This document shows positions 7,369 to 30,063 of a stretch of 64,000 nt of DNA, one piece after another. Position numbers and translations under genes: made by a program. Below the pieces are notes generated by a model. It saw only the letters and a list, made by a program, of their open reading frames with translations, had not been told where the DNA came from and made no database searches. The number at the start of each line of letters is the position of its first letter. Within the stretch, counting starts at the first letter, position 1. The stretch lies in the NCBI RefSeq assembly GCF_011682145.1, contig NZ_WHJH01000006.1, positions 62,001 to 126,000 of the forward strand. Direction: 5' to 3'. This DNA comes from Massilia mucilaginosa (lineage in GTDB: Bacteria; Pseudomonadota; Gammaproteobacteria; Burkholderiales; Burkholderiaceae_D).

Positions 7369-8135
7369 GCGCCCTGCTGGCCGCCGCGATCGGGCTGGCA
7401 TCGCTGCTCGCCTGCGCGCAGGCGGGCGCGTGCAGCCGCCCGCTGAACATGGTCAGCGAAGAGTGGCCGCCCTACTCGTTTACCAACGAAGAGAATCTCC
7501 AGACCGGCCTCGATATGGACATGGCCAAGGCCATCCTCAAGGAAGCCGGCTGCACCCTGGTCACCGCGCCGCCGCTGCCGACCGTGCGGCGCATGCTGCT
7601 GTTCGAGCGCGGCGACTTCGACCTGATGCTGGCCGCCACCGACACGCCGGAGCGGCGCCGGTTCGCGCGCTTTTCCGACGCCTACCGCCACGAGACGGTG
7701 GCGCTGTTCGCGCTGGAGCGCGACCATGCGCGCTACGCCGGCATCAACAGCATGCCGGCCGTGCTGCGCGGCCAGGCGGCCGTACTGGCGCCGCGCGTCG
7801 GCTGGTACGGCGCCGATTTTGCGAAGGCCGTGCCAAGCCTGCGCGCCGGCGGGCGCCTGTTCGAGTTCGGCACCTTCGAGCAGGGCATGCGCATGCTCGG
7901 CGCCGGCCGCGCGCAGCTGATCATGGGCGACCGCGCCGCCGTGCTGTACGAAGCGCAGCGCCAGAAGCTGGTGCTGCGCCAGCTTCCGTTCGTGCTGCAG
8001 CAGGCCCCTGTGCACTTGATGCTCAGCCGCGCCAGCACCACCGTCGACGACCTGGCGCGCATCAACGCGGCCATCGCGCGGCTTGAGAAAAACGGCAGCC
8101 TGCAAGCGCTGCGCGCACGCTACGGCGTGCGCTGA
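7347..8135 (+). CDS. Periplasmic substrate-binding protein, SBP_bac_3 type
   Basis: A 262-residue exported protein. A signal peptide covers about residues 1-27 (hydrophobic core SALLAAAIGLASLLACAQAGA). The mature part is like amino-acid ABC-type binding proteins: an N-terminal WPPYSFTNEENLQTGLDMDMAKAI motif, then the DLMLAATDTPERR hinge region. No permease or ATPase gene is adjacent, so it may be an orphan solute sensor rather than part of a transporter. It overlaps the methyltransferase gene by 22 bp, so co-transcription is likely. The ligand is unknown. Confidence 0.85.
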   Translation: MAPARTVSALLAAAIGLASLLACAQAGACSRPLNMVSEEWPPYSFTNEENLQTGLDMDMAKAILKEAGCTLVTAPPLPTVRRMLLFERGDFDLMLAATDTPERRRFARFSDAYRHETVALFALERDHARYAGINSMPAVLRGQAAVLAPRVGWYGADFAKAVPSLRAGGRLFEFGTFEQGMRMLGAGRAQLIMGDRAAVLYEAQRQKLVLRQLPFVLQQAPVHLMLSRASTTVDDLARINAAIARLEKNGSLQALRARYGVR

Positions 8136-8254
8136 GGCGCCGAGCCGTACAAAAAGAAACTTGCAGAACCGTATTGAATGCGCAACATATTGAATGACAT
8201 AACTACAAGATTGACGTACGCTGGTTGACAAGCGATCAACCACCGGAGACGGAT

Positions 8255-10378
8255 ATGCGAGGACATCATGCAGGGTTCATCGGTCTGGTTTGCTGTCTTC
8301 TCGCTGGTTGCTCCACGCTGAGCAAATCGATTGAACAGCGGGTGGAGGTAAGCGAGCAATGCCGACTTGCCACCTCGCAGTTGCCGGGCGGGCTGAAACC
8401 GCCCGATGCCATCGCAAGCGTTACGCTGGGTAACCTCGGGAGTTGCCGCATTGGTCAACAAGACCAGCCGCTGGCAGTGTGCTCGCTCAAGCAGATTGTT
8501 GCGCGCTCTGGATTCAAGCACAATCCCACATTGAAAGCCAGCGCGGCATCCGTTGAAGAATTCGATAAAGCCGAAATGGCTTTCCGCGAGCAGCTTGCAA
8601 AGATGGTGGGTCAGGCAAACGAGCTTGACCTCATCTATCAGAAGCACTTCGTCAACGCGACGCGATCCACTTACAGCGGCAATACCGCGTTGCTGAATGA
8701 AATTCGCAATGTGGCACTGAACGGCGACACGGACCGGCAAGCGCTGCGCGAGGCGCTCGACCGGCTTAGCAGAGCAACGTCCAGCCTGGGAACGGCGCTG
8801 GAACTCGATGCGAGAGCCGAATTGGCAGCGTGGGACCACAATGTGCGCGCCCAGCTTGATCAGATGGAGCGCTTGTTTTCAGGCGATCTTCGCCTTGTCC
8901 TGCACGACAGTTTGCGCGACCAGGTAGTGACCCATGTCGCGCGCCGCAGCCTGGAGTTGCTGCACGGATCGCTGAAAGCGGCGGATGCGGTACTCAACCG
9001 CCTCGACGACAAGGCCTACGGCGCCGTCAGCATTGGCTATCTGGCCTTTGGGCCGAACATTCAAAGCGCGGTCAACGATGCGTACGGCAAGCTGGAAGAA
9101 GTGTATGCGAAGCGCCAGAAGGACGCGGGCGCGTCCCCGAAGGACTCCATCAGCAACACCCAGATCTTCATGGAGGAACTGCGGCGGGCGGCGTGCGACA
9201 GGCTGGTCAAGGGCACCCAGTTTTCCATGCTGTCGGAACTGGTCGATACCATGCTGATTTTGAAAGTCACCGACAAATATCCACTGCTTCCCCCCGTCAA
9301 TTCCCCCTGGCGGGCGGGCAATGGCGCCGAAACGCCCAAGCAGGCAGGAAGTCTGGATGTGGATGGGGAAGAAGGCTATCTGATGTTTGCCAACGCGCCG
9401 GCGTCGGCGAGTTTCGGCGAGACGCCTCGCACCACGCCTTTCTCAGTGTATGTGGTCAGCGAATGGACGGCGCGGCAACACCTGCTCAAGCAAAAGATGA
9501 CTGCCAGGCTGATGGCCCAGGCCGACAAAGGCGTGGTGGGCAATTTCCCGGGAATCGAGACCCTGGACGAGAGTGCAGTCGAACGCCTGGCCGATGCGGT
9601 GACGGCAAAAACCGTCGACGACGCCGTGCGCCTGGAACCGGGCATGCTGACCGCCACGAACGTGTCGGGCTCGCCCTATCTGACGAGCGCACTGAACGTC
9701 ACCAACGCCTCGCATGCGGTCAGCATGGCCTCGATCGCCCTCAACCTGAATATCAGCATCAGCAATACGAATACATTCGCGGCAACCAATCAGAATATTG
9801 TCGCGCCCATGATTTACCTTCCTTCGGCGGGTGCGAGTGAATCCGTACCGGCGCTCTGCGATGCGGTTCAAGCGCTGTCGGCCGGAACGACATGCATCCG
9901 CGACGGGGCGGGCTACTCGGTCATCTTCGATGGCCCGTTCGGCAGCGATTCTTGCCAGGCCGGTGATCTTGAACCGGCCCTGAGCGCGATCGGCCAGCGC
10001 CTGGCCACCTATCGCGATCTGCACGGCGTCCGGTTCGACGCCACGGTCGATGGCTTCTCGTCACTCCCCAAAGCCAAGCTGGCCTACTGCCCGGTGGTGA
10101 AACGCGCGCCGGTCAATTGCCGCTTTCCGAACAAACTGCTTGAATCGATTGCCATCAAAGGATGTTCCCCCGCCATGCGCGACCGCAACGGCATTTTGTC
10201 GGCCGCACGCGCCAGGAACGCTGCCGCATTGATCGAAGCGTCGGGCAAGGGCGCGGTCATCGTCAAGGCGCTGAGCGCGCGCGGCATCGAAATTGCATCC
10301 CTGCGCGGCGAAAACGCCCGGCCCGCCGCCGACCAGACGATCATTCTTCGCTTGCAGCCGATTCCCGCGCCCCGCTAG
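8255..10378 (+). CDS. Large unknown lipoprotein with possible divergent OmpA-like C terminus
   Basis: A 707-residue predicted outer-membrane lipoprotein. Residues 1-19 form a lipoprotein signal with lipobox LLAGC. The start is the ATG after GGAGACGG; an upstream TTG would add ten residues before the signal. The N-terminal half is helical. The middle holds an Asn/Ser/Thr-rich stretch (NLNISISNTNTF). The C terminus has ATVDGFSS, then a Cys-containing insert, then RNGILSAARARNAAALIEAS and a last strand QTIILRLQP, an order reminiscent of a divergent OmpA-like peptidoglycan-binding domain. That reading is inference. By eye its GC and third-position GC look lower than in its neighbours, which may indicate transfer. 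GGTTGA/TCAACC inverted repeats lie at about 8223-8241. Function unknown. Confidence 0.8.
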   Translation: MRGHHAGFIGLVCCLLAGCSTLSKSIEQRVEVSEQCRLATSQLPGGLKPPDAIASVTLGNLGSCRIGQQDQPLAVCSLKQIVARSGFKHNPTLKASAASVEEFDKAEMAFREQLAKMVGQANELDLIYQKHFVNATRSTYSGNTALLNEIRNVALNGDTDRQALREALDRLSRATSSLGTALELDARAELAAWDHNVRAQLDQMERLFSGDLRLVLHDSLRDQVVTHVARRSLELLHGSLKAADAVLNRLDDKAYGAVSIGYLAFGPNIQSAVNDAYGKLEEVYAKRQKDAGASPKDSISNTQIFMEELRRAACDRLVKGTQFSMLSELVDTMLILKVTDKYPLLPPVNSPWRAGNGAETPKQAGSLDVDGEEGYLMFANAPASASFGETPRTTPFSVYVVSEWTARQHLLKQKMTARLMAQADKGVVGNFPGIETLDESAVERLADAVTAKTVDDAVRLEPGMLTATNVSGSPYLTSALNVTNASHAVSMASIALNLNISISNTNTFAATNQNIVAPMIYLPSAGASESVPALCDAVQALSAGTTCIRDGAGYSVIFDGPFGSDSCQAGDLEPALSAIGQRLATYRDLHGVRFDATVDGFSSLPKAKLAYCPVVKRAPVNCRFPNKLLESIAIKGCSPAMRDRNGILSAARARNAAALIEASGKGAVIVKALSARGIEIASLRGENARPAADQTIILRLQPIPAPR

Positions 10379-18275: not shown

Positions 18276-18351
18276 TGGCGTCCCCAAGGGGATTCGAACC
18301 CCTGTACTCACCGTGAAAGGGTGATGTCCTAGGCCTCTAGACGATGGGGAC
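18276..18351 (-). tRNA. tRNA-Glu (TTC), copy 3
   Basis: A 76-base cloverleaf starting GTCCCCATCG, anticodon loop CTTTCAC (anticodon TTC), encoded CCA. Identical by eye to the two other Glu copies. Confidence 0.97.
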
Positions 18352-18406
18352 CTGAACTGTTGTCAGGTAGCGGCAACTACCTGCAATGTACGACTACATC
18401 AAAACT

Positions 18407-18482
<76 letters not shown>

Positions 18483-18547
18483 CATGTAACGCGAACTACT
18501 CTGCGCTGGAACAACAAAGAACCGTTTTCACGACCCTCTGGTAAAAC

Positions 18548-18623
18548 TGGCGTCCCCAAGGGGATTCGAACCCCTGTACTCACCGTGAAAGGGTGATGTC
18601 CTAGGCCTCTAGACGATGGGGAC
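18548..18623 (-). tRNA. tRNA-Glu (TTC), copy 2
   Basis: Same 76-base sequence as the other Glu tRNAs, anticodon TTC, CCA encoded. It lies after an internal terminator-like hairpin at 18674-18697. Confidence 0.97.
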
Positions 18624-18673
18624 AGAAATCTGTCCTGGACGTATTCTACATCCTGACCTGCCTTACTGCACCA

Positions 18674-18697
18674 ATAAAAAACCCTGACGTATCAGGG
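18674..18697 (-). terminator. Terminator-like hairpin inside the tRNA cluster
   Basis: On the minus strand CCCTGA, loop TACG, TCAGGG, then TTTTTTATT. It would end a transcript carrying only the first Ala-Glu pair, or act as a partial attenuator. Confidence 0.6.
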
Positions 18698-18720
18698 CGT
18701 TTAGTGGTACTAAACTGCGG

Positions 18721-18750
18721 CTGCATTATACTGCATCTTACTGCATTTTA
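18721..18750. repeat. Three 10-bp tandem repeats between tRNA-Glu genes
   Basis: CTGCATTATA, CTGCATCTTA, CTGCATTTTA in direct succession: a degenerate 10-bp tandem repeat in non-coding DNA. Confidence 0.7.
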
Positions 18751-18762
18751 CTACTCGAATCC

Positions 18763-18838
18763 TGGCGTCCCCAAGGGGATTCGAACCCCTGTACTCACCG
18801 TGAAAGGGTGATGTCCTAGGCCTCTAGACGATGGGGAC
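18763..18838 (-). tRNA. tRNA-Glu (TTC), copy 1
   Basis: A 76-base cloverleaf identical by eye to copies 2 and 3, anticodon TTC, CCA encoded. Confidence 0.97.
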
Positions 18839-18906
18839 CCGGTACTGCTTCAGATAGTGGCATCTATCTGCAATCTACTACAACTGCGTACAACTACTTC
18901 GATTAG

Positions 18907-18982
<76 letters not shown>

Positions 18983-20749: not shown

Positions 20750-22255
20750 ATGAAACGACGCACCTTTCTGGCGGCTGGCGGCGCTGCCGCCATCGGCAAT
20801 GCGCTGACGGCCTGCGGCGGCTCGCGCAATCGACCTCCTCCGCCACCGGAACCGGAACCGGAACCGACCCAAGCGGGCACGGTCACCGGCTGGAACAACC
20901 AGGCGCTCGAGGCCGTGCGCGCCACGCGCATGGCGCCTACCATGGCCGCGCGCGCGGTCGCGATTGTCCACAGTGCCATGTACGAAGCCTGGGCCGCCTA
21001 CGACAATGCCGCACTCGGACAGTACCTGGGCGCGCAGTTGCGCAGGCCGGCCGTGGAGCGCACCGCGGCCAACAAAGCGAAGGCCATGAGCTTTGCCGCG
21101 TATGCCGCCCTGCTCGATCAGTTTCCCGGCCAGCAAGCCGCCCTCACCGCCTACCTCATCACGCTCGGCAGCCGCCCGATCGATGCCTACAACAACACGG
21201 CCACCGCCCCCCGCCTGGGCACCATCGCCGCCCAGGCGGTACTCGACAAGCGCCGCGACGATGGCGCCAACCAGGCAGGCACGATGGCGCCGGGCGGCAC
21301 CCCGTTCGCCGATTACAGCGGCTACCTGGCGCGCAATCCCCCTCTGCTGGTCATCCAGCCCACGCCGCGCAGCAACATCGTCTTCCCCGACCGCTGGCAA
21401 CCGCTCTCGCTCAACGACGCCGCCGGCGTGCGCCGCACCCAGAGCTTTCTCACCCCGTTCTGGGGCACGGTGCGGCCGTTCGCGCTGACCTCGGGCAGCC
21501 AGTTCCGCCCGCCCCCGCCTGCCACCTTCGGCACCCAGGAATTTGTCGATCAGGCAGCCGAGATCGTTCAGATCCAGGCCACCTTGAGCGAGCGCCAGAA
21601 GGTCATCGGCGACTTCTGGGCCGGCGGCGCCGGCGGCGAATTGCCCGGTTCGTACTGGTGCCGCTTTGCCCAATTGATGTCGGCGCGCAAGGGCTACACC
21701 GACGATGACGACGTGAAACTGTTTTTCGCGCTCACCAACGCCGTACTCGATGCCAGCATTGCCGCCTGGGACGCCAAGCGCGCCTACGATTCAGCGCGCC
21801 CGATCAGCGCGATCCGCTACCTGTTCAACGGGCGCATCGTTCAAAGCTTCGGCCCGGAAGGCCCGGCCGGCGGACTGCGTCCGGTCCCCGGCGAGGCCTG
21901 GATGCCCTTCCAGCTGCCGAGCGCGCCCACACCGGCCTTCCCCGACCATGTTTCCGGACACAGCACCTTCAGCGCGGCCTCGGCCGAAGTGCTGCGGCGC
22001 TTTACCGGCAGCGATTTGTTCAGGCATGCGGTCACCATCCAGGCGCGCTCGCTCCTGATCGATCCTGGCCTGCCCACGGCGCCCGTCACCCTTGCCTGGG
22101 AAACCTTCACCGACGCCGTCATCGAGGCCAGCGCGTCGCGCACGTATACGGGCATCCACTTCGAGCGCGCCAGCGATGCCGGCCGCTCGCTCGGCAACCA
22201 GGTGGGCGCCACCGCGTTCGCACGCGCACGCGCGCTCTGGAGCGGCAACGCCTGA
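20750..22255 (+). CDS. Vanadium-dependent haloperoxidase-like PAP2 protein, Tat-exported
   Basis: A 501-residue exported protein of the vanadium haloperoxidase / PAP2 acid phosphatase superfamily. The N terminus MKRRTFLAAGGAAAIG is a twin-arginine signal ending in LTACGG, which could be a lipobox. A Pro/Glu spacer follows. The C-terminal half has the phosphate/vanadate-binding motifs: KRAYDSARPISAIRY, PDHVSGHSTFSAAS, and a last motif RTYTGIHFERASDAG, each with its expected basic or His residues. It would act in the periplasm or on the surface. Halide oxidation versus phosphatase activity cannot be told from sequence. It is monocistronic. Confidence 0.85.
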   Translation: MKRRTFLAAGGAAAIGNALTACGGSRNRPPPPPEPEPEPTQAGTVTGWNNQALEAVRATRMAPTMAARAVAIVHSAMYEAWAAYDNAALGQYLGAQLRRPAVERTAANKAKAMSFAAYAALLDQFPGQQAALTAYLITLGSRPIDAYNNTATAPRLGTIAAQAVLDKRRDDGANQAGTMAPGGTPFADYSGYLARNPPLLVIQPTPRSNIVFPDRWQPLSLNDAAGVRRTQSFLTPFWGTVRPFALTSGSQFRPPPPATFGTQEFVDQAAEIVQIQATLSERQKVIGDFWAGGAGGELPGSYWCRFAQLMSARKGYTDDDDVKLFFALTNAVLDASIAAWDAKRAYDSARPISAIRYLFNGRIVQSFGPEGPAGGLRPVPGEAWMPFQLPSAPTPAFPDHVSGHSTFSAASAEVLRRFTGSDLFRHAVTIQARSLLIDPGLPTAPVTLAWETFTDAVIEASASRTYTGIHFERASDAGRSLGNQVGATAFARARALWSGNA

Positions 22256-22578
22256 CCACACGCCGCCCCGCCACGCGCTGCCAGGCCGGCATCGGCCGGA
22301 CTGGCAGCCGCCAGCCCTGCGCGGCCAGATCAATGCCTGCCGCTTGCCCCCAGATCCGATCCCTCCTCGTCAAAGCCGCCGCGTGTAACACCCCCCGGCC
22401 GCCTGGCGCGGATCGACACTGCGCAACCGGCCACCAGCGCTACGCCCACCGCATCCGGCGCTGGCATGGCTGAGGGGCCGGTTCGGCAAAAAAGGACTTC
22501 CCAAAATGGCTACCAACGGTTAACTTACTAACTTTAATCATTTGCCAACGGTCTTTAGCCGTGGGCATTGTCCCCTCC
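22256..22578. other. Intergenic region before the SWIM-MoxR-VWA operon
   Basis: About 323 bp without a supported gene. The left two thirds are GC-rich. The last 80 bp are clearly AT-richer (around 22495-22560, with TTAACTTACTAACTTTAATC) and are the likely promoter zone of the following operon. No hairpin terminator was recognised. Confidence 0.5.
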
Positions 22579-23931
22579 ATGACTTTGAACGCCGATCAAA
22601 TCCTCGCACTGGCGCCCGATGCGAGTTCCGCCAAAGCCGGCAGCCAGCTCGCCGGACCCGCCAAATGGGGCAACCTGGGCCGGACCGACAGCGCCGTGTG
22701 GGGCGAATGCCAGGGCAGCGGCAAAGTTCCCTACCGTACCCAGATCGACCTCGGCGAACCTGCTTTCAAGTGCTCCTGCCCCAGCCGCAAGTTTCCGTGC
22801 AAGCACGGCATCGGCCTGTATCTGCTACTCGCTGCCAACGGCCCGCTGTTCGCCGCCTCCGAAGCGCCGCAGTGGGTCGGCGACTGGCTCGACAGCCGCC
22901 AGCAGCGCAGCGAAAAGAAGCAGCAAAGCGCCGCCGACAAAGCCGCCGCCACCACGCCCGAGCAAGCCGCGGCGCAAGCGGCGGCCGCGCAAAAACGCGA
23001 GGAAAAGCGCGACAACAAAGTCGCAGCCGGCATCGTCGAGCTGCAAACCTGGCTGGAAGACCTGGCGCGCGAGGGCTTGTCGACCCTGCGCGCACGCGGC
23101 CCCGCGTTCTGGACCGACATTGCCGCCCGCATGGTCGACGCCCAGGCCGGCGGCCTGGCTGCGCGCCTGCGCCGCGCCAGCGGCATGTGCTTCGACACCA
23201 AGCTGCCCGACTGGGAAACCCGGCTGGCGCGCGAACTGGCCGCGATCTACCTGCTCGGCACCGCCTGCCGCCGCCTGCCTGACCTTGCGCCGGAACTGCA
23301 AAGCGACGTACGCTCCCTGGTCGGCTGGAGCGTCAGCCAGGAGGACGTGCTGGCCCAGACCGGCGTGCAGGACCGCTGGCAGGTGCTGGCCCAGCACACC
23401 AGCGACAACGAACGCGTGCGTGCACGTACGACCTGGCTGCGCGGGCAGGCGAGCGGGCGCTGGGCCATGATCTTGCAGTACGCCGCCGGCACGCAGGGCT
23501 ACGACAAGGTGCTGGCACCCGGCACCCAGTTCGATGGCGAACTGTGCTTCTACCACAGCGCTTACCCGCTGCGCGCCCTGATCAAACAGCAGGAAGCCTT
23601 CGGCACGCTCGACGCCCTGGCGCCCGCCCCCACCCTGGACACCGCGCTGGCCGCCTACGCCGAGGCGCTGGCGCGCAACCCCTTCCTCGACCGCTTTCCG
23701 TTGCTGCTGGACGCCATGGTGCCGCACGCAGGCACGGCGCCCCACCTTGCCGGCGCCGATGGACGGATACTGCCGCTGCACGCAGGCTTTCGCCACCTGT
23801 GGCCGCTGCTCGCGCTCAGCGGCGGCCACCCGGTCACGGTGATGGGCGAGTGGGACGGCTACGCCATCGTCCCGCTCGGCGTGTTCGCCGAAGGCCGCTT
23901 GCATCATTTTGACAATGAGACCGTCGCATGA
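22579..23931 (+). CDS. SWIM zinc-finger protein (YehQ-like)
   Basis: A 450-residue cytoplasmic protein. A SWIM zinc finger sits near the N terminus (CSC at 65-67, CKH at 74-76; pattern CxC-x6-CxH), followed by a charged Ala/Lys/Gln-rich helical linker (about 105-145) and an uncharacterised C-terminal region. SWIM fingers bind DNA or protein partners. The start is the ATG of MTLNADQILAL; a GTG six codons earlier is possible. It is the first gene of a five-gene operon, overlapping the next gene as ATGA. E. coli yehQ, in the yehLMPQ locus, also encodes a SWIM protein, so this is probably a functional counterpart. Confidence 0.85.
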   Translation: MTLNADQILALAPDASSAKAGSQLAGPAKWGNLGRTDSAVWGECQGSGKVPYRTQIDLGEPAFKCSCPSRKFPCKHGIGLYLLLAANGPLFAASEAPQWVGDWLDSRQQRSEKKQQSAADKAAATTPEQAAAQAAAAQKREEKRDNKVAAGIVELQTWLEDLAREGLSTLRARGPAFWTDIAARMVDAQAGGLAARLRRASGMCFDTKLPDWETRLARELAAIYLLGTACRRLPDLAPELQSDVRSLVGWSVSQEDVLAQTGVQDRWQVLAQHTSDNERVRARTTWLRGQASGRWAMILQYAAGTQGYDKVLAPGTQFDGELCFYHSAYPLRALIKQQEAFGTLDALAPAPTLDTALAAYAEALARNPFLDRFPLLLDAMVPHAGTAPHLAGADGRILPLHAGFRHLWPLLALSGGHPVTVMGEWDGYAIVPLGVFAEGRLHHFDNETVA

Positions 23932-25523
23932 GTTCCCCGCTCCCGATAAAAATCCATCAAACCCTGCAGATCGGCACCTCGCGCGCCGCGCCCGGTTTCG
24001 ACGACGACCTGCCGCTGGACCTGCGCGACAGCGTGCGCAGCCGTCCCGGCGCGAACGCCGCCCCGCCAGAGGAAAACCTGTGGCTCTCGCTGGCCGCGCA
24101 CGCCCTGTGGCAGCGCGCCGGCCACCAGCCCGCCAGCGCCGCGGAAGGTGCGCCGGCAACGCCGCCCTGCGACAGCGATGCCTTGCGCCCCTGCCCGGCG
24201 CAGGCCGAAAAAGCGCTGGCGCTGCTGCTCGATGACTATCCGCAAGTGCGCCCCGAATGGCTGCGCCTGGCGAATGCCCATCAATGCCGCCTGCCGCCGC
24301 GCCTGCTACCGGGCGTGCTGGACCTGGGCACCGCGCAGCGTCCCCTGCGCGCCCTGATCGAAGGCGTGCTGGGCGCGCGCGGCCACTGGCTGGCGAAGCA
24401 GAATCCCGACTGGAACTGGGTTGGCGCCGACACCGATGACGTCAACGCCTTGTGGGAAGACGGCAATATCGAACAGCGTGCCAACGCGCTGCGCGACATG
24501 CGTGCAGGCGACACGGGCGCCGCCGTGCAGGCCCTGCAAGCGACCTGGGCCAGCGAAACGCCGGATCACCGCGCCACCCTGCTCGGCTGCCTGTCGGTCG
24601 GCCTGAGCCTGGCCGACGAAGCCTTTCTGGAAAGCGCGCTCGACGACAAGCGCAAGGAAGTGCGCAGCGTGGCCCAGCGCCTGCTGGCCGGCCTGCCCGG
24701 CTCGCAACTGGCGCAGCGCATGCTGGAACGCGCCTTGCCGCTGCTGCGCGTCGAACGCAACGGCGCCTCGAGCCACCTGCTGGTCGAGGTACCGCAAGAG
24801 CGCGACAAAAGCATGCAGCGCGACGGTGTCGGCGCCGGCCTGTACCCCGCCATGGGCGAAAAGTCGAGCTGGGTGGTCGATATTCTGGCCGCCGTGCCGC
24901 CGACCCACTGGTCGACCAGCTTCGACGCCTCCCCGCGCACCTGTTTGACACTGGCCATGGGCAGCGAGTTCAAACATACTTTGCTGCTGGGCTGGTCGAG
25001 CGCGCTGCAACGCAGCCTGCAAGCCGGCTACGATGCCGGCCTGCATGCGTGGTTCACCGCCTTCCTCGACCTGTACCTGAAATCGACCGGCATCCACACC
25101 CACATGCCGCGCGACTTCTTCAGCCTGTTCGGCACCCTGCCGCCGGATGCCGCCGACGCCTTGCTCGGCACCCTGGTCGAAGCCACCCCGGCCGCCTGGA
25201 TGCGCGCCCATTCGAGCCTGATCGACCTGCTCGACGATGCCGCCAAGAACGCGAAGCGCAACTGGCCGCTGGCCTTGTCCAAGGCCGTGGTCAGCCGCAT
25301 CCAGGCCGGCTGCGCGGCCAACACGCTGCAAAGCTGGTCGCTCAGCTACACCATGGCCACCTTGGCGCTGGTGCTCGACCCGCGCGCCATCGAAGCCTAC
25401 GAAAACGGCTGGCCGAAAGACATCCCCGAGTTCGCGCAGTGGGAAGACACGGTCGGCAAATTCCTGCGCACCCTGCGTTTCCGACACGATATGTACTTAC
25501 CTTTTCAGGAGCACTCTGCATGA
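23928..25523 (+). CDS. DUF5691-family protein
   Basis: A 531-residue cytoplasmic protein of the uncharacterised DUF5691 type. It is helical and Ala/Leu-rich, with repeat-like helix pairs in the centre (RVLLAGLPGSQLAQRML-type turns) suggesting a HEAT-like scaffold. No catalytic motif was recognised and there is no signal or membrane segment. It is translationally coupled on both sides: ATGA with the SWIM gene and ATGA with the AAA gene. Position between a zinc-finger protein and a MoxR-type ATPase suggests an adaptor role; that is inference. Confidence 0.75.
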   Translation: MSSPLPIKIHQTLQIGTSRAAPGFDDDLPLDLRDSVRSRPGANAAPPEENLWLSLAAHALWQRAGHQPASAAEGAPATPPCDSDALRPCPAQAEKALALLLDDYPQVRPEWLRLANAHQCRLPPRLLPGVLDLGTAQRPLRALIEGVLGARGHWLAKQNPDWNWVGADTDDVNALWEDGNIEQRANALRDMRAGDTGAAVQALQATWASETPDHRATLLGCLSVGLSLADEAFLESALDDKRKEVRSVAQRLLAGLPGSQLAQRMLERALPLLRVERNGASSHLLVEVPQERDKSMQRDGVGAGLYPAMGEKSSWVVDILAAVPPTHWSTSFDASPRTCLTLAMGSEFKHTLLLGWSSALQRSLQAGYDAGLHAWFTAFLDLYLKSTGIHTHMPRDFFSLFGTLPPDAADALLGTLVEATPAAWMRAHSSLIDLLDDAAKNAKRNWPLALSKAVVSRIQAGCAANTLQSWSLSYTMATLALVLDPRAIEAYENGWPKDIPEFAQWEDTVGKFLRTLRFRHDMYLPFQEHSA

Positions 25524-26611
25524 CCGCCATTTCTACCATCCTGCGCCAGCACGCCGAAACGCAGTACGCCGAGGAACTCGCAGCGCTGGCCGCGGTCGAC
25601 ACGCGCCAGCGCCCGCCGCGCTGGAAGCTGTCGCCATGGGCCGTGTCCAAATACCTGCTGGGCGGCACGCTGGACAATGGCGTGGAAATCAGCGCCAAGT
25701 ACATCGGCAATGCGCGCATCATCGAAATCGCCGTCGCCACCCTGGCCACCGACCGCGCCCTGCTGCTGCTGGGCGTACCCGGGACCGCCAAGTCGTGGGT
25801 ATCGGAACACCTGGCTGCCGCCATCAGCGGCGATTCGACCATGATCGTGCAGGGAACCGCCGGCACCAGCGAGGAAGCGGTGCGCTTCGGCTGGAACTAC
25901 GCGCAGCTGCTGGCCAAAGGGCCGTCGATGGAAGCGGTGGTGCCGAGCCCGATCATGCGCGCCATGCGCGACGGCAAAATCGCCCGCGTCGAAGAATTGA
26001 CCCGCATCCCGAGCGAAGTGCAGGACAGCCTGATCACCATCCTGTCGGAAAAAATGCTGCCGATCGCCGAGCTCGACGATGAAGTGCTGGCGCAAAAGGG
26101 CTTTAACATCATCGCCACCGCCAACGACCGCGACCGTGGCGTGAATGAACTGTCGAGCGCGCTCAAACGCCGCTTCAACACCGTGGTGCTGCCGCCGCCG
26201 GCCACCGCCGACGAGGAAGTGCGCATCGTCGAAACCCGCGTGGCCAGCCTCGGCCGCGCGCTGGAGTTGCCGGGCGAAGTGCCGGCGCTGGAAGAAATCC
26301 GCCGCGTCGTCACCGTGTTCCGCGAGCTGCGCGCCGGCGTCACCAGCGACAGCAAGCGCAAGATCAAGGCCCCCAGCGCCAGCATGAGCACGGCCGAAGC
26401 GATTTCGGTCATCACCAACGGCATGTCGCTGGCGGCCCACTTCGGCGACGGCACCATGCGCGGCGCCGACGTGGCCGCCGGCATGATCGGCGCCATCGTC
26501 AAGGACCCGGTCCAGGACCGCGTGGTCATGCTGGAATATCTGGAAACCGTGGTCAAGGAACGCGAAGGCTGGAAAGACCTGTACCGGGCCTGCCGCGACG
26601 TGATGAACTGA
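25520..26611 (+). CDS. MoxR-type AAA+ ATPase (YehL-like)
   Basis: A 363-residue AAA+ ATPase of the MoxR group. Walker A is GVPGTAKS (85-92), followed by the MoxR-type insert QGTAGTSEEAVRFGWNY. The Walker B position reads RVEELTRIPSEVQ, so the usual DE pair appears as EE. Sensor 1 is FNIIATAND and the arginine finger SALKRRF. MoxR ATPases usually work with VWA proteins as chaperone-like remodelling machines, and a VWA protein is encoded two genes downstream. The ATG overlaps the DUF5691 stop (ATGA). E. coli YehL is the closest named relative I can suggest from layout. Confidence 0.9.
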   Translation: MTAISTILRQHAETQYAEELAALAAVDTRQRPPRWKLSPWAVSKYLLGGTLDNGVEISAKYIGNARIIEIAVATLATDRALLLLGVPGTAKSWVSEHLAAAISGDSTMIVQGTAGTSEEAVRFGWNYAQLLAKGPSMEAVVPSPIMRAMRDGKIARVEELTRIPSEVQDSLITILSEKMLPIAELDDEVLAQKGFNIIATANDRDRGVNELSSALKRRFNTVVLPPPATADEEVRIVETRVASLGRALELPGEVPALEEIRRVVTVFRELRAGVTSDSKRKIKAPSASMSTAEAISVITNGMSLAAHFGDGTMRGADVAAGMIGAIVKDPVQDRVVMLEYLETVVKEREGWKDLYRACRDVMN

Positions 26612-26615
26612 GCCG

Positions 26616-28916
26616 ATGAGCGTTCATTTATTCGGCATCCGCCACCACGGTCCGGGCTGCGCGCGCAGCCTGGCGCACGCCTTGCAGGCGCTGGCCCCGG
26701 ACTGCATCCTGATCGAAGGTCCGCCCGAGGCCGACGAGCTGATCGCCTTTGCCGCCGACCCGGCCATCAAGCCGCCGGTCGCGCTGCTGGTCTACGTGCC
26801 GGCCACGCCGCAGCGCGCCGTGTTCTACCCGTTCGCCGCGTTCTCGCCGGAATGGCAAGCCATGCGCTACGCCACCGCCAACGGCGTGCCGGTGCGCTTT
26901 TGCGACTTGCCGCAGGCGCATCGCCTGGCCGGGCCGGAGGTTGTCGAGGCCGGTCCGGCCGAGGCTGAAGATGCGGATAGGGACGAGCAAGCGGACGAGG
27001 ACGGCGCCGCGCAGGCATCGCCCGGCAGCGACAGCGACGAGCTGCACGAAGACCCGCTGCACTGGCTCGCCAACGCCGCCGGCTTTTCGGACACCGACAC
27101 CTGGTGGGAGCACCTGGTCGAGCAGCGCGCCGACAGCCTCGACCTGTTCGCCGCCATCGCCGAAATGATGAGCACGGTGCGCACCGACATCGCCGCCCCG
27201 CCCAATCTGCACGAGCAGCAGCGCGAAGCGTGGATGCGCAACGCCATCCGCCTGGCCGAAAAACAGGGCCACCAGCGCATCGCCGTGGTCTGCGGCGCCT
27301 ACCACGTGCCGGCGCTGGCAAGCATGCCGTCCGCCAAGAGCGACAACGACTTGCTCAAGGGCTTGCCGAAGGTCAAACTGGCGGCGACCTGGACCCCGTG
27401 GAGCTACGGCCGCCTGGCCTTTCGCAGCGGCTACGGAGCGGGGGTCAGCGCGCCCGGCTGGTACCATCACCTGTGGAACCACCCGGCCCAGGCCAGCCTG
27501 TACTGGCTGACCGACGTCGCCATCTTGCTGCGCAAGCACGACCTGGATGCCTCCTCGGCCAGCATCATCGAAGCGGTGCGCCTGGCCGATACGCTGGCGG
27601 CGATGCGCGAACGGCCCCGTCCGGGCCTGGGCGAGTTGCAGGAAGCGGTGCGCGCGGTGTTTTGCTACGACAACGACAGCCCGCTGCGCCTGATCCACGA
27701 CGCCCTGCTGATCAACGACCGCCTGGGCGAGGTGCCCGACAGCGTGCCGACCCTGCCGCTGCCGCAGGATGTGCAGGCCCAGCAAAAACGCCTGCGCCTG
27801 CCGGTCAAGGCCGACCACAGCCAGCTCGAACTCGACCTGCGCCAGCCGGCGCACCTGGAAAAAAGCGTGCTGCTGCACCGCCTGGCGCTGCTCGGCGTCG
27901 AGTGGGGCCGCTCCGAACGCGTGAGCGGCAAGTCCGGCACCTTCCACGAATGGTGGCGCCTGGCATGGGAGCCGGAGTTTGCGATCCGCCTGATCGAAGC
28001 GAACGTGTGGGGCGGCACCGTGCAAGCGGCCGCCACCGGCAAGGCGGTCAGCCAGGCCAACGAGGCCACGACCCTGCCCGACCTGACCGCCCTGATCGAA
28101 CAGGTCTTGCTGGCCGACCTGCCGCAAGCGGTCGACTTGCTGATGCGGCGCATCCAGGAAGTCGGCGCCTTGACGCCCGACGTCGGCTTCATGCTGGCGG
28201 CCCTGCCGCCGCTGGCCGGCGTGCTGCGCTACGGCAGCGTGCGCGCCACCGATACCAGCGCCATCGGCCAGGTGGTCGACGGCCTCGTCACGCGCGCCTG
28301 CATCGCCCTGCCCTACGGCGTGCTGGGCATGGCCGACGAACCGGCGGGGGTGCTGGTCAAGCAGCTCATCGCCGCCGACCGCGCGATCCGCCTGATTCAG
28401 GAAGAAGCGCTGCTGGACGCCTGGTTCGACGCGCTCGACCAGGTGGCGGGCAATGAACAGTCGCATCCGCTGATCAGCGGGCGCTGCGCCCGTATTCTGT
28501 CGGAGCAAGGACACTGGGACCAGGAACGCACCGCGCGCGCACTGGCGCAGCGCTGCTCGCACGCCAGCGCGCCTTTGGCCAGCGGCAACTGGCTCGAAGG
28601 TTTTCTACAGGGCAGCGCGGCCCTGCTGCTGCACAACGACAGCTTGTGGACCCTGGTCAATTCCTGGATCAACAGCCTCGATGCGGACAGCTTCGTCGAA
28701 CTGCTGCCGCTGCTGCGCCGCACCTTCGGCGCCTTTGAAGCACCCGAGCGGCGCCAGCTGAGCGAACGCGCCGGCAGCGCCGGAGGCACGGTAAGCATCG
28801 CCGCATCGGGCGGCAACCTCGATGAAGCGCGCGCCAGGCTGGTGCTGCCGGTGCTGGGCATGATTCTCGGCGGCAGCGCAGTGACATCGACAACGGAGGC
28901 CGCTCATGGCGCATGA
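26616..28916 (+). CDS. DUF5682-family protein (YehM-like)
   Basis: A 766-residue cytoplasmic protein of the uncharacterised DUF5682 type. It starts with the family hallmark HLFGIRHHGPGCARSL, followed by LIEGPPEADELI. An acidic low-complexity insert (about residues 110-145) separates the N-terminal alpha/beta part, with a second conserved block (VVCGAYHVPAL, TWTPWSYGRLAFRSGYGAG), from a long helical C-terminal half. The histidines and acidic residues of the first part could be catalytic, but this is not established. It starts 4 bp after the AAA gene and overlaps the VWA gene by 11 bp. Length is close to E. coli YehM (about 760). Confidence 0.8.
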   Translation: MSVHLFGIRHHGPGCARSLAHALQALAPDCILIEGPPEADELIAFAADPAIKPPVALLVYVPATPQRAVFYPFAAFSPEWQAMRYATANGVPVRFCDLPQAHRLAGPEVVEAGPAEAEDADRDEQADEDGAAQASPGSDSDELHEDPLHWLANAAGFSDTDTWWEHLVEQRADSLDLFAAIAEMMSTVRTDIAAPPNLHEQQREAWMRNAIRLAEKQGHQRIAVVCGAYHVPALASMPSAKSDNDLLKGLPKVKLAATWTPWSYGRLAFRSGYGAGVSAPGWYHHLWNHPAQASLYWLTDVAILLRKHDLDASSASIIEAVRLADTLAAMRERPRPGLGELQEAVRAVFCYDNDSPLRLIHDALLINDRLGEVPDSVPTLPLPQDVQAQQKRLRLPVKADHSQLELDLRQPAHLEKSVLLHRLALLGVEWGRSERVSGKSGTFHEWWRLAWEPEFAIRLIEANVWGGTVQAAATGKAVSQANEATTLPDLTALIEQVLLADLPQAVDLLMRRIQEVGALTPDVGFMLAALPPLAGVLRYGSVRATDTSAIGQVVDGLVTRACIALPYGVLGMADEPAGVLVKQLIAADRAIRLIQEEALLDAWFDALDQVAGNEQSHPLISGRCARILSEQGHWDQERTARALAQRCSHASAPLASGNWLEGFLQGSAALLLHNDSLWTLVNSWINSLDADSFVELLPLLRRTFGAFEAPERRQLSERAGSAGGTVSIAASGGNLDEARARLVLPVLGMILGGSAVTSTTEAAHGA

Positions 28917-30063
28917 CATTACCCCGCAGGAACAAACGCGCCGCTGGCGCATGGTATTGGGCAGCGAGCCTGGCCAGCCGGAAGTCGCGCTCGGCGTCGA
29001 CGACCTGGCCATGGACCGGGCGCTGTCGGCCCTGTACAACCCGCCATCGGGACGCGGCGCCGGGCTCGGCGCGTCGGCGCCGAACGTGTCGCGCTGGCTG
29101 GGCGACATCCGCCAGTATTTTCCGTCGAGCGTGGTGCAGGTGATGCAGAAAGATGCGCTGGAGCGGCTGGGCCTGGAGCAAATGCTGCTGGAACCCGAAA
29201 TGCTCAAGTCGGTCGAGCCGGATGTGCATCTGGTCGCCACCCTGCTCAGCTTGAACAAGGTGATGCCGAACAAGACCAAGGAAACCGCGCGCATCGTGGT
29301 GCGCCAAGTGGTGGACGAGCTCGAACGCCGGCTGGCCAGTCCGTTCCGGCAGGCGGTGACGGGCAGCCTGAACCGGGCGGTGCGCAACCGCCGTCCGCGC
29401 CATCACGAAATCGACTGGCTGCGCACGATCCGCGCCAATCTGCGGCATTACCAGCCGGAGTACCGGACGATCATCCCGGAAACGCGCATCGGCTTCGGGC
29501 GCAAGGGGCAATCGCTGCGCGATATCGTGCTGTGCATCGACCAGAGCGGCTCGATGGCGCCGTCGGTGGTGTACGCCAGCGTGTTCGCGGCGGTGCTGGC
29601 GACCATCAAGGCGGTCAGTACCCAGGTGGTGGTGTTCGATACGGCGGTGATCGACCTGACGCCGATGCTGGCCGATCCGGTCGATGTGCTGTTCGGTACG
29701 CAATTGGGCGGCGGGACGGATATCAACCGGGCGCTGAGGTATAGCCAGGGCTTGATCACGCGGCCGACCGAGACCATTTTCGTGCTGATCAGCGATTTGT
29801 ACGAAGGTGGGAATAATGACGAGATGCGCAAGCGGGCGGCGGCGCTGGTGGCGGCGGGCGTGCAGGTGATCGTGCTGCTGGCGCTCGACGATCACGGGGC
29901 GCCGAGTTACGACCATGCGAATGCGGCGTATTTTGCCGCGCTGGGGGCGCCGTGCTTTGCGTGTACGCCGGATCTGTTCCCGGAGTTGATGGCTGCGGCG
30001 ATCAAGCGTAGCGATCTAAGCCAGTGGGCGGCGGAAGTGGGGATTGTGGGGGTGAAGGCGTAA
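28906..30063 (+). CDS. VWA-domain protein (YehP-like)
   Basis: A 385-residue cytoplasmic protein. The N-terminal helical half ends in a basic stretch, and the C-terminal von Willebrand A domain carries the metal site DQSGSM (D212) with T and D residues in LGGGTDINRAL and LISDLYEGG, so the MIDAS looks intact. VWA proteins pair with MoxR ATPases to present substrates or cofactors. It is the last gene of the operon and is followed by an inverted repeat. Length and partners match E. coli YehP. Substrate unknown. Confidence 0.88.
   Translation: MAHDITPQEQTRRWRMVLGSEPGQPEVALGVDDLAMDRALSALYNPPSGRGAGLGASAPNVSRWLGDIRQYFPSSVVQVMQKDALERLGLEQMLLEPEMLKSVEPDVHLVATLLSLNKVMPNKTKETARIVVRQVVDELERRLASPFRQAVTGSLNRAVRNRRPRHHEIDWLRTIRANLRHYQPEYRTIIPETRIGFGRKGQSLRDIVLCIDQSGSMAPSVVYASVFAAVLATIKAVSTQVVVFDTAVIDLTPMLADPVDVLFGTQLGGGTDINRALRYSQGLITRPTETIFVLISDLYEGGNNDEMRKRAAALVAAGVQVIVLLALDDHGAPSYDHANAAYFAALGAPCFACTPDLFPELMAAAIKRSDLSQWAAEVGIVGVKA

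What the first reader, a model, noticed from the sequence alone, without database searches (positions are those of the whole stretch)
22579..30063. Coupled SWIM - DUF5691 - MoxR ATPase - DUF5682 - VWA operon, a yehLMPQ-like system of unknown function
Five genes overlap or nearly overlap end to end, so they are made together. The set pairs a MoxR-type AAA ATPase with a MIDAS-bearing VWA protein (a known chaperone-like pairing), two uncharacterised DUF proteins, and a zinc-finger protein. The set resembles E. coli yehL/yehM/yehP/yehQ, which has no known role; MoxR-VWA systems have been proposed in comparative genomics as conflict or remodelling systems. It is the best candidate here for an undescribed system.
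Basis: partly seen in the sequence, partly recalled or inferred. Interest (0 to 1): 0.72.

Follow-up and report, generated by a model that had tools for sequence, protein, structure and literature searches.

The report
Predicted five-gene ATPase-hydrolase machine
Five overlapping bacterial genes form a conserved set whose make-up suggests a molecular machine in which an ATP-burning ring and its partner work a predicted metal-dependent cutting enzyme, steered by a zinc-finger adaptor; the same set recurs in distant bacterial phyla, and its job is unknown.

Summary
In detail: SWIM, DUF5691, MoxR, DUF5682 and VWA genes overlap or nearly touch at 22579-30063. The same order stands in 26 other distinct loci of several phyla. 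Each DUF5691 carrier over cut-off also had DUF5682: 7 of 7 among 398 Pseudomonadota, 18 of 18 among 296 Actinomycetota; likewise 13 of 13 plasmid records by tblastn.

It is not yehLMPQ itself: the genome carries yehLMPQ orthologues elsewhere, and DUF5691-bearing operons form their own clade in three trees. Yeh-type loci go with DUF4132 giants (19 of 21), window-type loci do not (0 of 42).

New reading: the DUF5682 N-terminus is TraB/TIKI-like, probably a metal-dependent hydrolase; DUF5691 models as a helical solenoid. Natural fusions (SWIM-DUF5691, DUF5682-VWA) suggest an adaptor module and a motor-hydrolase module.

Best model: MoxR-VWA activates or feeds the hydrolase on targets chosen by SWIM-DUF5691. 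The substrate is unknown; a defence role is unsupported. Nearest precedent seen: a predicted MoxR and metallopeptidase-VWA pair of jumbo phages. I found no functional paper in the library searched.

The parts
22486..22578 (+). Conserved upstream block (possible promoter/leader) directly before the SWIM gene
   Evidence: 64 of 97 alignment columns identical in 7 loci of the genus, window included; no sigma-70 consensus found
22579..23931 (+). SWIM zinc-finger protein, 450 aa; predicted adaptor subunit
   Evidence: Pfam PF04434 20.9 bits, cut-off 19.6; motif in 35 of 35 rows
22771..22806 (+). SWIM metal-binding motif (residues 65-76 of the SWIM protein)
23928..25523 (+). DUF5691 protein, 531 aa; models as an alpha-helical solenoid, HEAT/ARM-like
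25520..26611 (+). MoxR AAA+ ATPase of the YehL type, 363 aa
   Evidence: PF07728 E 4.3e-37; phmmer E 1e-73 against E. coli YehL
25772..25795 (+). Walker A motif of the MoxR protein (residues 85-92)
   Evidence: 56 of 56 rows
26616..28916 (+). DUF5682 protein, 766 aa; TraB/TIKI-like N-terminal domain plus C-terminal helical solenoid
   Evidence: PF18934 E 8.1e-269; model pLDDT 80
26616..27335 (+). TraB/TIKI-like putative metallo-hydrolase domain of DUF5682 (about residues 1-240)
27975..28778 (+). C-terminal alpha-solenoid of DUF5682 (about residues 454-721)
28906..30063 (+). VWA (CoxE-like) protein, 385 aa; predicted MoxR co-chaperone
   Evidence: PF05762 E 1.3e-52; phmmer E 3e-66 against E. 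coli YehP
29521..29985 (+). VWA domain with MIDAS residues (DxSxS, T, D)
   Evidence: Pfam ranges 148-360 (VWA_CoxE) and 206-324 (VWA); DQSGSM in 49 of 51 rows

Best explanation
The operon encodes a two-module, ATP-driven machine. Motor-hydrolase module: a MoxR AAA+ ring, its VWA partner, and DUF5682, whose N-terminal domain is a TraB/TIKI-like, probably metal-dependent hydrolase (most likely a peptidase) on a solenoid. Adaptor module: a SWIM zinc-finger protein and the DUF5691 solenoid. The adaptor recognises a target (nucleic acid, protein, or both). The VWA domain bridges ring and DUF5682. ATP hydrolysis then remodels the target or DUF5682, so that the TraB-like site acts only there. SHOWN by computation: the anatomy, conserved active-site-like residues, gene coupling, co-occurrence, adaptor/core split, natural fusions. 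INFERRED: that the site is catalytic, that it is a peptidase, the physical complex, the order of events. UNKNOWN: the substrate.

For: Physical coupling. DUF5682 and VWA are one open frame in 4 of 4 Actinomycetota loci that I fetched because their listed open frames were long (L171, L174-L176), each with MoxR beside it. SWIM and DUF5691 are one 1009-aa protein in a Hymenobacter plasmid.

Two modules. In 3 of 9 stretches fetched the set splits into two divergent units, SWIM-DUF5691 and MoxR-DUF5682-VWA (L165-L167). The core also occurs with another partner set (DUF4132, often YehQ).

Precedents. In NorQD the VWA domain is modelled as plugging the MoxR ring, with its MIDAS on the client (passages seen, PMC9976466). 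In some jumbo phages a MoxR-vWA pair has a metallopeptidase domain fused to the vWA protein (passage seen, PMC7824862). TIKI proteins are described as metalloproteases (passages seen, PMC12329661).
Confidence: 0.42

Rival explanations
1. Maturation chaperone: MoxR-VWA loads a metal or cofactor into DUF5682 itself, or into a client enzyme carried by DUF5682, as NorQD does for nitric oxide reductase and RavA-ViaA is proposed to do for respiratory enzymes. The TraB-like domain is then client or metal carrier, not the executioner.
For: MoxR proteins with studied roles mature or activate enzyme complexes (PMC3893208 passages; PMC9976466 passages). The MoxR here also resembles midasin and NorQ chains in sequence, and the VWA is CoxE-like.
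Against: I saw no client enzyme gene that travels with the type A operon: flanks differ between loci outside the window's clade. The DUF5682-VWA fusions make DUF5682 look like part of the machine rather than its client.
Confidence: 0.25
2. Anti-phage or other conflict system, a relative of the MoxR-vWA ternary systems of Kaur et al. 2020, with DUF5682 as effector and SWIM-DUF5691 as sensor.
For: The MoxR passes the bpMoxR Pfam cut-off narrowly (28.9 against 27 bits, over 52 residues only). Patchy distribution of DUF5682 (13 of 60 relatives, 14 of 398 phylum genomes). Three plasmid copies lie beside suggestive genes: type I restriction and PDDEXK nuclease (L142, yeh type), PDDEXK nuclease and recombinase (L137), recombinase and VapC toxin-antitoxin (L140). 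One acidobacterial copy has a NADAR gene inside the operon.
Against: No PADLOC match for the five proteins. Flanks of 10 loci (107 proteins) gave 7 PADLOC families (mad2, mad3, mad8, two WYL, two Csa3), against 52 families in 94 control proteins from the same genomes; of the 25 control families shown, 23 are GajB (UvrD-type helicase). The gene picks for this test are rough: the same kind of caller missed MoxR in the window. About 86-93% identity within the clade and one conserved site in 7 genomes of the genus. A scan of viral contigs, which finds close relatives only, confirmed none.
Confidence: 0.12
3. DNA-damage or stress response complex: the SWIM-DUF5691 adaptor senses damaged DNA or stalled protein-DNA complexes, and the motor clears them.
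For: SWIM and WGR are DNA-linked domains by general knowledge; WGR is in one DUF4132 partner of the sister type (L088), and E. coli yehF near yehL is of the same Pfam family PF05406. DUF4132 and WGR genes of Deinococcus radiodurans rise strongly on DdrO depletion (passage seen, PMC8533742).
Against: [quoted passage not shown] No LexA-like palindrome stands close to the SWIM start; two loose CTG-CAG matches lie further up in the gap.
Confidence: 0.13
4. The TraB-like resemblance is only a shared Rossmann-like arrangement and DUF5682 is a non-enzymatic scaffold.
For: No direct HMMER match to PF01963; Foldseek E-values of 0.07 and above.
Against: Collinear match of six TraB invariants and control profiles near zero.
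Confidence: 0.08

Closest known systems
E. coli yehL-yehM-yehP-yehQ (YehL subfamily of MoxR)
   Same: MoxR, DUF5682 and VWA in the same order; a SWIM protein in the operon
   Different: SWIM first, not last; DUF5691 present; no DUF4132 neighbours found; separate clade in three trees. I found no known function for the E. coli system either.
MoxR and metallopeptidase-vWA pair of group 2.2 jumbo phages (PMC7824862, passage seen)
   Same: MoxR with a vWA protein physically joined to a predicted peptidase; the DUF5682-VWA fusions parallel this
   Different: Phage-borne and proposed for virion assembly; the peptidase family was not compared here; no SWIM or DUF5691 partner is named in the passage
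NorQ-NorD, CbbQ-CbbO, RavA-ViaA (MoxR-VWA chaperone pairs)
   Same: MoxR AAA+ ring with a VWA partner bearing MIDAS
   Different: Those act on a known enzyme or complex; here the VWA partner is coupled, and sometimes fused, to a TraB-like domain
MoxR-vWA ternary conflict systems (Kaur et al. 2020, PMC7159879; passages seen)
   Same: MoxR plus VWA plus further proteins; narrow bpMoxR match
   Different: No VMAP, STAND, FtsH or beta-propeller domain over its cut-off in the five proteins; the words Yeh and SWIM were not found in that paper's held text
TraB/PrgY/TIKI superfamily
   Same: GxxH, E, R and GxxH residues in collinear order
   Different: Domain joined to a solenoid and to a AAA+/VWA motor operon; below Pfam detection as PF01963

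Membership tests
MoxR AAA+ ATPases, YehL subfamily | AAA_5/MoxR core with Walker A, sensor I and arginine finger; similar to YehL | tested here: met
   PF07728 E 4.3e-37; Walker A 56/56, sensor I 55/56, arginine motif 56/56 rows; YehL E 1e-73
MoxR-VWA pair | VWA protein with MIDAS residues in the same operon | tested here: met
   PF05762 E 1.3e-52; DQSGSM in 49 of 51 rows
yehLMPQ system | Gene order MoxR-DUF5682-VWA-YehQ with SWIM protein last | tested here: not met
   SWIM comes first and DUF5691 is present; no YehQ match by phmmer at 1e-3
yehLMPQ system | DUF4132 genes adjacent | tested here: not met
   19 of 21 yeh-type loci (6 of them supplied the profile's seeds, so 13 of the other 15) against 0 of 42 window-type loci, of which 6 are duplicates and several are short contigs; none in the window
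yehLMPQ system | Groups with YehL, YehM, YehP in trees | tested here: not met
   27 DUF5691-bearing loci form one side of a branch, 100/100 for DUF5682 and MoxR, 100 SH-aLRT for VWA (quick tree)
TraB/PrgY/TIKI superfamily (for the DUF5682 N-terminus) | GxxH, E, R and GxxH residues in collinear order | tested here: met
   six of the ten invariants are matched
TraB/PrgY/TIKI superfamily (for the DUF5682 N-terminus) | Direct match to Pfam PF01963 | tested here: not met
   not reported at E up to 1; therefore called TraB-like, not filed as PF01963
TraB/PrgY/TIKI superfamily (for the DUF5682 N-terminus) | Same fold as a solved member | tested here: inconclusive
TraB/PrgY/TIKI superfamily (for the DUF5682 N-terminus) | Metal-dependent hydrolysis | not testable with these tools
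   needs purified protein
MoxR-vWA ternary conflict systems | Third part: VMAP, inactive STAND, FtsH or VWA-fused beta-propeller | tested here: not met
   No such Pfam domain over its cut-off in the five proteins; nSTAND3 13.9 bits on MoxR is below its cut-off of 27.2. Against this, the bpMoxR model for the MoxR part itself is passed at 28.9 bits (cut-off 27, 52 residues)
Known anti-phage defence systems | Match to PADLOC models | tested here: not met
   0 families for all five at E up to 1
HEAT/ARM solenoids (for DUF5691) | Alpha-alpha repeat superhelix like solved HEAT/ARM proteins | tested here: inconclusive

The most novel reading that the evidence does not exclude
DUF5682 operons define an undescribed cellular class of AAA+-powered proteolytic machine: a MoxR ring working through a VWA bridge on a TraB/TIKI-type metallopeptidase, with interchangeable targeting modules (SWIM-DUF5691 in one ancient lineage, DUF4132/WGR with YehQ in the other). 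It would stand beside, and be unrelated to, Clp, Lon and FtsH. The one precedent seen for a MoxR-VWA-peptidase coupling is a prediction in jumbo phages; I lowered the interest from 0.86 to 0.83 on that account.
Probability: 0.22. Interest if true: 0.83.

Novelty: new variant of a known kind. Interest (0 to 1): 0.6.

Why it matters
The set joins five protein families, two of them DUFs, into one testable machine and gives DUF5682 a predicted active site with named residues. It also bears on what E. coli yehLMPQ does, because the MoxR-DUF5682-VWA core is shared and E. coli K-12 is an easy test bed. If the TraB-like site cuts proteins under MoxR control, cellular MoxR ATPases would gain a proteolytic role; of the passages that I saw, only one on jumbo phages proposes such a coupling.

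Tried and rejected
Defence island: unsupported after PADLOC scans of the five proteins and of flanks with a same-genome control. The sample is small (10 loci) and the gene picks are rough.

Phage carriage: PHROGs matched DUF5682 (one family) and VWA (two; the second weak). The only phage record found (MT835988.1) is an unverified 14-kb faecal scaffold with MoxR-DUF5682-VWA; I take it for bacterial DNA (inference). A scan of viral contigs confirmed no relative.

YehQ as a SWIM plus DUF5691 fusion: no support. DUF5691 against YehQ gives prob 0.3; SWIM against YehQ gives prob 65 over 85 columns only. DUF5691 as a piece of DUF4132: no support (prob 0.5).

One search, a first TraB comparison, used some wrong-strand reading frames; I discarded it and repeated it. 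One search failed (script error). ChaN comparison: prob 0.8, control level. PDB sequence search with the DUF5682 profile: nothing up to E 10. With a TraB profile: ten weak hits, best E 0.033, none a TraB protein by name. VWA against PDB sequences: one hit at E 0.48. Fold searches of full-length models were filled by solenoids; families not listed there are not excluded.

Literature (open-licence library only): no paper held DUF5682, DUF5691, VWA_CoxE, yehLMPQ or yehLMP; none joined MoxR, VWA and 'SWIM zinc finger'. Searches for yeh names gave 650, 41 and 71 papers, of which 40, 25 and 40 rows were listed; by their titles most rows were surnames or unrelated words. Searches on NADAR/WGR/MoxR/SWIM and on DUF4132/WGR/molR were listed to 20 of 93 and 25 of 297. 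yehQ is one of the genes cloned in a butanol-tolerance study; I saw only the strain table (PMC6442406). Papers on copper and microgravity were seen as listings only. Subscription papers are not held, so older SWIM or MoxR reviews could mention these neighbourhoods.

Full report
WHAT IS THERE. The window lies in a 7.7-Mb genome (G000) related to Massilia: the closest named loci are Massilia aquatica, rubra, frigida and atriviolacea. Five + strand genes overlap or nearly touch from 22579 to 30063: SWIM, DUF5691, MoxR, DUF5682 and VWA, with spacings of -4, -4, +4 and -11 nt. Pfam agrees with each label. Metal-binding, Walker A and MIDAS motifs are present and conserved. A block of about 90 bp before the SWIM start is strongly conserved in seven loci of the genus (64 of 97 columns) and holds no sigma-70 consensus.

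IT IS A CONSERVED SYSTEM. The complete order SWIM-DUF5691-MoxR-DUF5682-VWA was found in 32 fetched loci. Named carriers include Oxalobacteraceae, MAGs of Chloroflexi, Acidobacteria, Armatimonadetes and Obscuribacterales, and Microtetraspora. Plasmids add Deinococcus taeanensis (complete, with one small extra gene), Hymenobacter (SWIM and DUF5691 fused), Rhizobium (SWIM in two pieces) and Methylosinus (VWA broken over three reading frames). Six further DUF5691 loci are incomplete. Three end at the contig edge (L059, L064, L071). One has a transposase gene after MoxR (L070). Two Bacteroidota carry DUF5691 without neighbours of the set (L068, L072). DUF5682 was present in 8 of 8 DUF5691 genomes that I chose to check, those of L068, L070 and L072 included (752-850 bits). 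Around the DUF5682 gene of the L068 genome I saw no MoxR or VWA (L170), so there the set seems scattered.

CO-OCCURRENCE. In 398 Pseudomonadota genomes DUF5691 is over its cut-off in 7 and DUF5682 in 14; all 7 have both, 1.2-1.7 kb apart. In 296 genomes of the phylum of the Microtetraspora locus, the counts are 18 and 21; all 18 have both. Sub-cut-off DUF5691 hits (2 and 3 genomes, 19-22 bits) have no DUF5682. All 13 plasmid records with a DUF5691 match are among the 36 with a DUF5682 match (tblastn). Only the best few candidates of each genome were scored, so absences are less sure.

TWO ANCIENT LINEAGES. The window's genome has three DUF5682 operons: the window type (A), a yehLMPQ orthologue (B, C361), and a more distant yeh-like one (C, C155). 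In trees of 45 loci, the 27 DUF5691-bearing loci form one side of a branch with full support for DUF5682 and MoxR (careful trees) and for VWA (quick tree, as the careful one was not finished); the loci that I labelled C are not one group. Partners differ too. DUF4132 giants lie beside 19 of 21 type B/C loci; six of these supplied the profile's seeds, so the independent count is 13 of 15, and the two misses end near a contig edge. They lie beside 0 of 42 type A loci, six of them duplicates and several short. One such giant also has a WGR domain and two have HEAT matches, of seven DUF4132 proteins scanned. A YehQ-profile match was found in 11 loci, and in L142 and L177, not in each B/C locus. 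The window operon is thus a sister of yehLMPQ with its own adaptor.

WHAT DUF5691 AND SWIM DO. DUF5691 models as a helical solenoid whose nearest solved rows are mostly HEAT/ARM type. SWIM and DUF5691 are one protein in a Hymenobacter plasmid. Of nine stretches fetched, three Actinomycetota ones have SWIM-DUF5691 as a unit divergent from MoxR-DUF5682-VWA (L165-L167), two have all five in one direction (L169, L172), and two have SWIM, MoxR, DUF5682 and VWA in one direction with DUF5691 seen only by the Pfam model (L168, L173). SWIM and DUF5691 are best seen as one adaptor module. DUF5682 and VWA are one open frame in four of four Actinomycetota loci fetched because of long open frames, with MoxR adjacent and no DUF5691 in those stretches (L171, L174-L176). 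Three others fetched at the same time (L177-L179) have separate VWA genes.

MECHANISM. MoxR-VWA pairs remodel or activate clients; in NorQD the VWA is modelled as plugging the ring, with its MIDAS on the client. By analogy, the ring here drives a VWA bridge joined to the TraB-like domain, and SWIM-DUF5691 brings the target. A MoxR-vWA pair with a metallopeptidase fused to the vWA protein has been predicted in jumbo phages, and TIKI proteins are described as metalloproteases, so peptide cleavage is the first activity to test. These steps are inferred.

DEFENCE? The five proteins match no PADLOC model. Flanking genes of ten loci are not enriched over a same-genome control (rough gene picks). The window clade keeps the operon at one chromosomal site. 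Against this, three plasmid copies lie near nuclease, recombinase, toxin-antitoxin or restriction genes, and one copy has a NADAR gene inserted. Distribution is patchy: 10 of 17 genomes of the genus, own genome included. I hold defence possible but unlikely.

NOVELTY. The parts are known families, and YehL is a named MoxR subfamily. The five-gene DUF5691 system, its separation from yehLMPQ and the TraB-like reading were not found in the library searched. I rate it a new variant of a known kind.

Noticed in passing
window 25520-26611 and homologues: The Walker B region of these MoxR proteins reads as two glutamates where most AAA+ proteins have aspartate-glutamate (that comparison is recalled); two glutamates were seen in at least 48 of 56 rows, plus L043; the rest were not shown or not resolved.
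   Followed up: partly
G000: C383 (window), C361:178384-180543, C155:44898-46988: One genome carries three paralogous DUF5682 operons of three types; G007, G014 and G016 also have three DUF5682 matches each.
   Followed up: yes
L066:7704-8150: A NADAR gene (148 aa) sits inside an acidobacterial type A operon between DUF5682 and VWA; NUDIX and DUF4406 genes lie just upstream of the Hymenobacter copy (L137), hinting at an ADP-ribose link.
   Followed up: no
L035:6044-6580: A 178-residue VWA fragment lies downstream of a type A operon, apparently a partial duplication.
   Followed up: no
L140 (Methylosinus plasmid pOB3b3), 14220-15388: The VWA gene is split over three reading frames, with insertion sequences nearby; the operon looks decayed there.
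   Followed up: no
L138 (Rhizobium plasmid) 8090-9498 and L060:8564-9877: The SWIM gene is read as two pieces, by a frameshift, a stop or a real split.
   Followed up: no
L141 (MT835988.1): A record filed as a bacteriophage holds MoxR-DUF5682-VWA; it is an unverified faecal scaffold and probably bacterial.
   Followed up: partly
window 20750-22255: The gene upstream encodes a vanadium-chloroperoxidase-like protein (VCPO second domain and DUF6851) and keeps its place beside the operon in other genomes of the genus.
   Followed up: partly
window 18276-18982: Cluster of five tRNA genes (three Glu, two Ala, minus strand) about 3.6 kb upstream.
   Followed up: no
L178, L179: A further Actinomycetota arrangement has the VWA gene first and a low-scoring DUF5682 after MoxR.
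   Followed up: no
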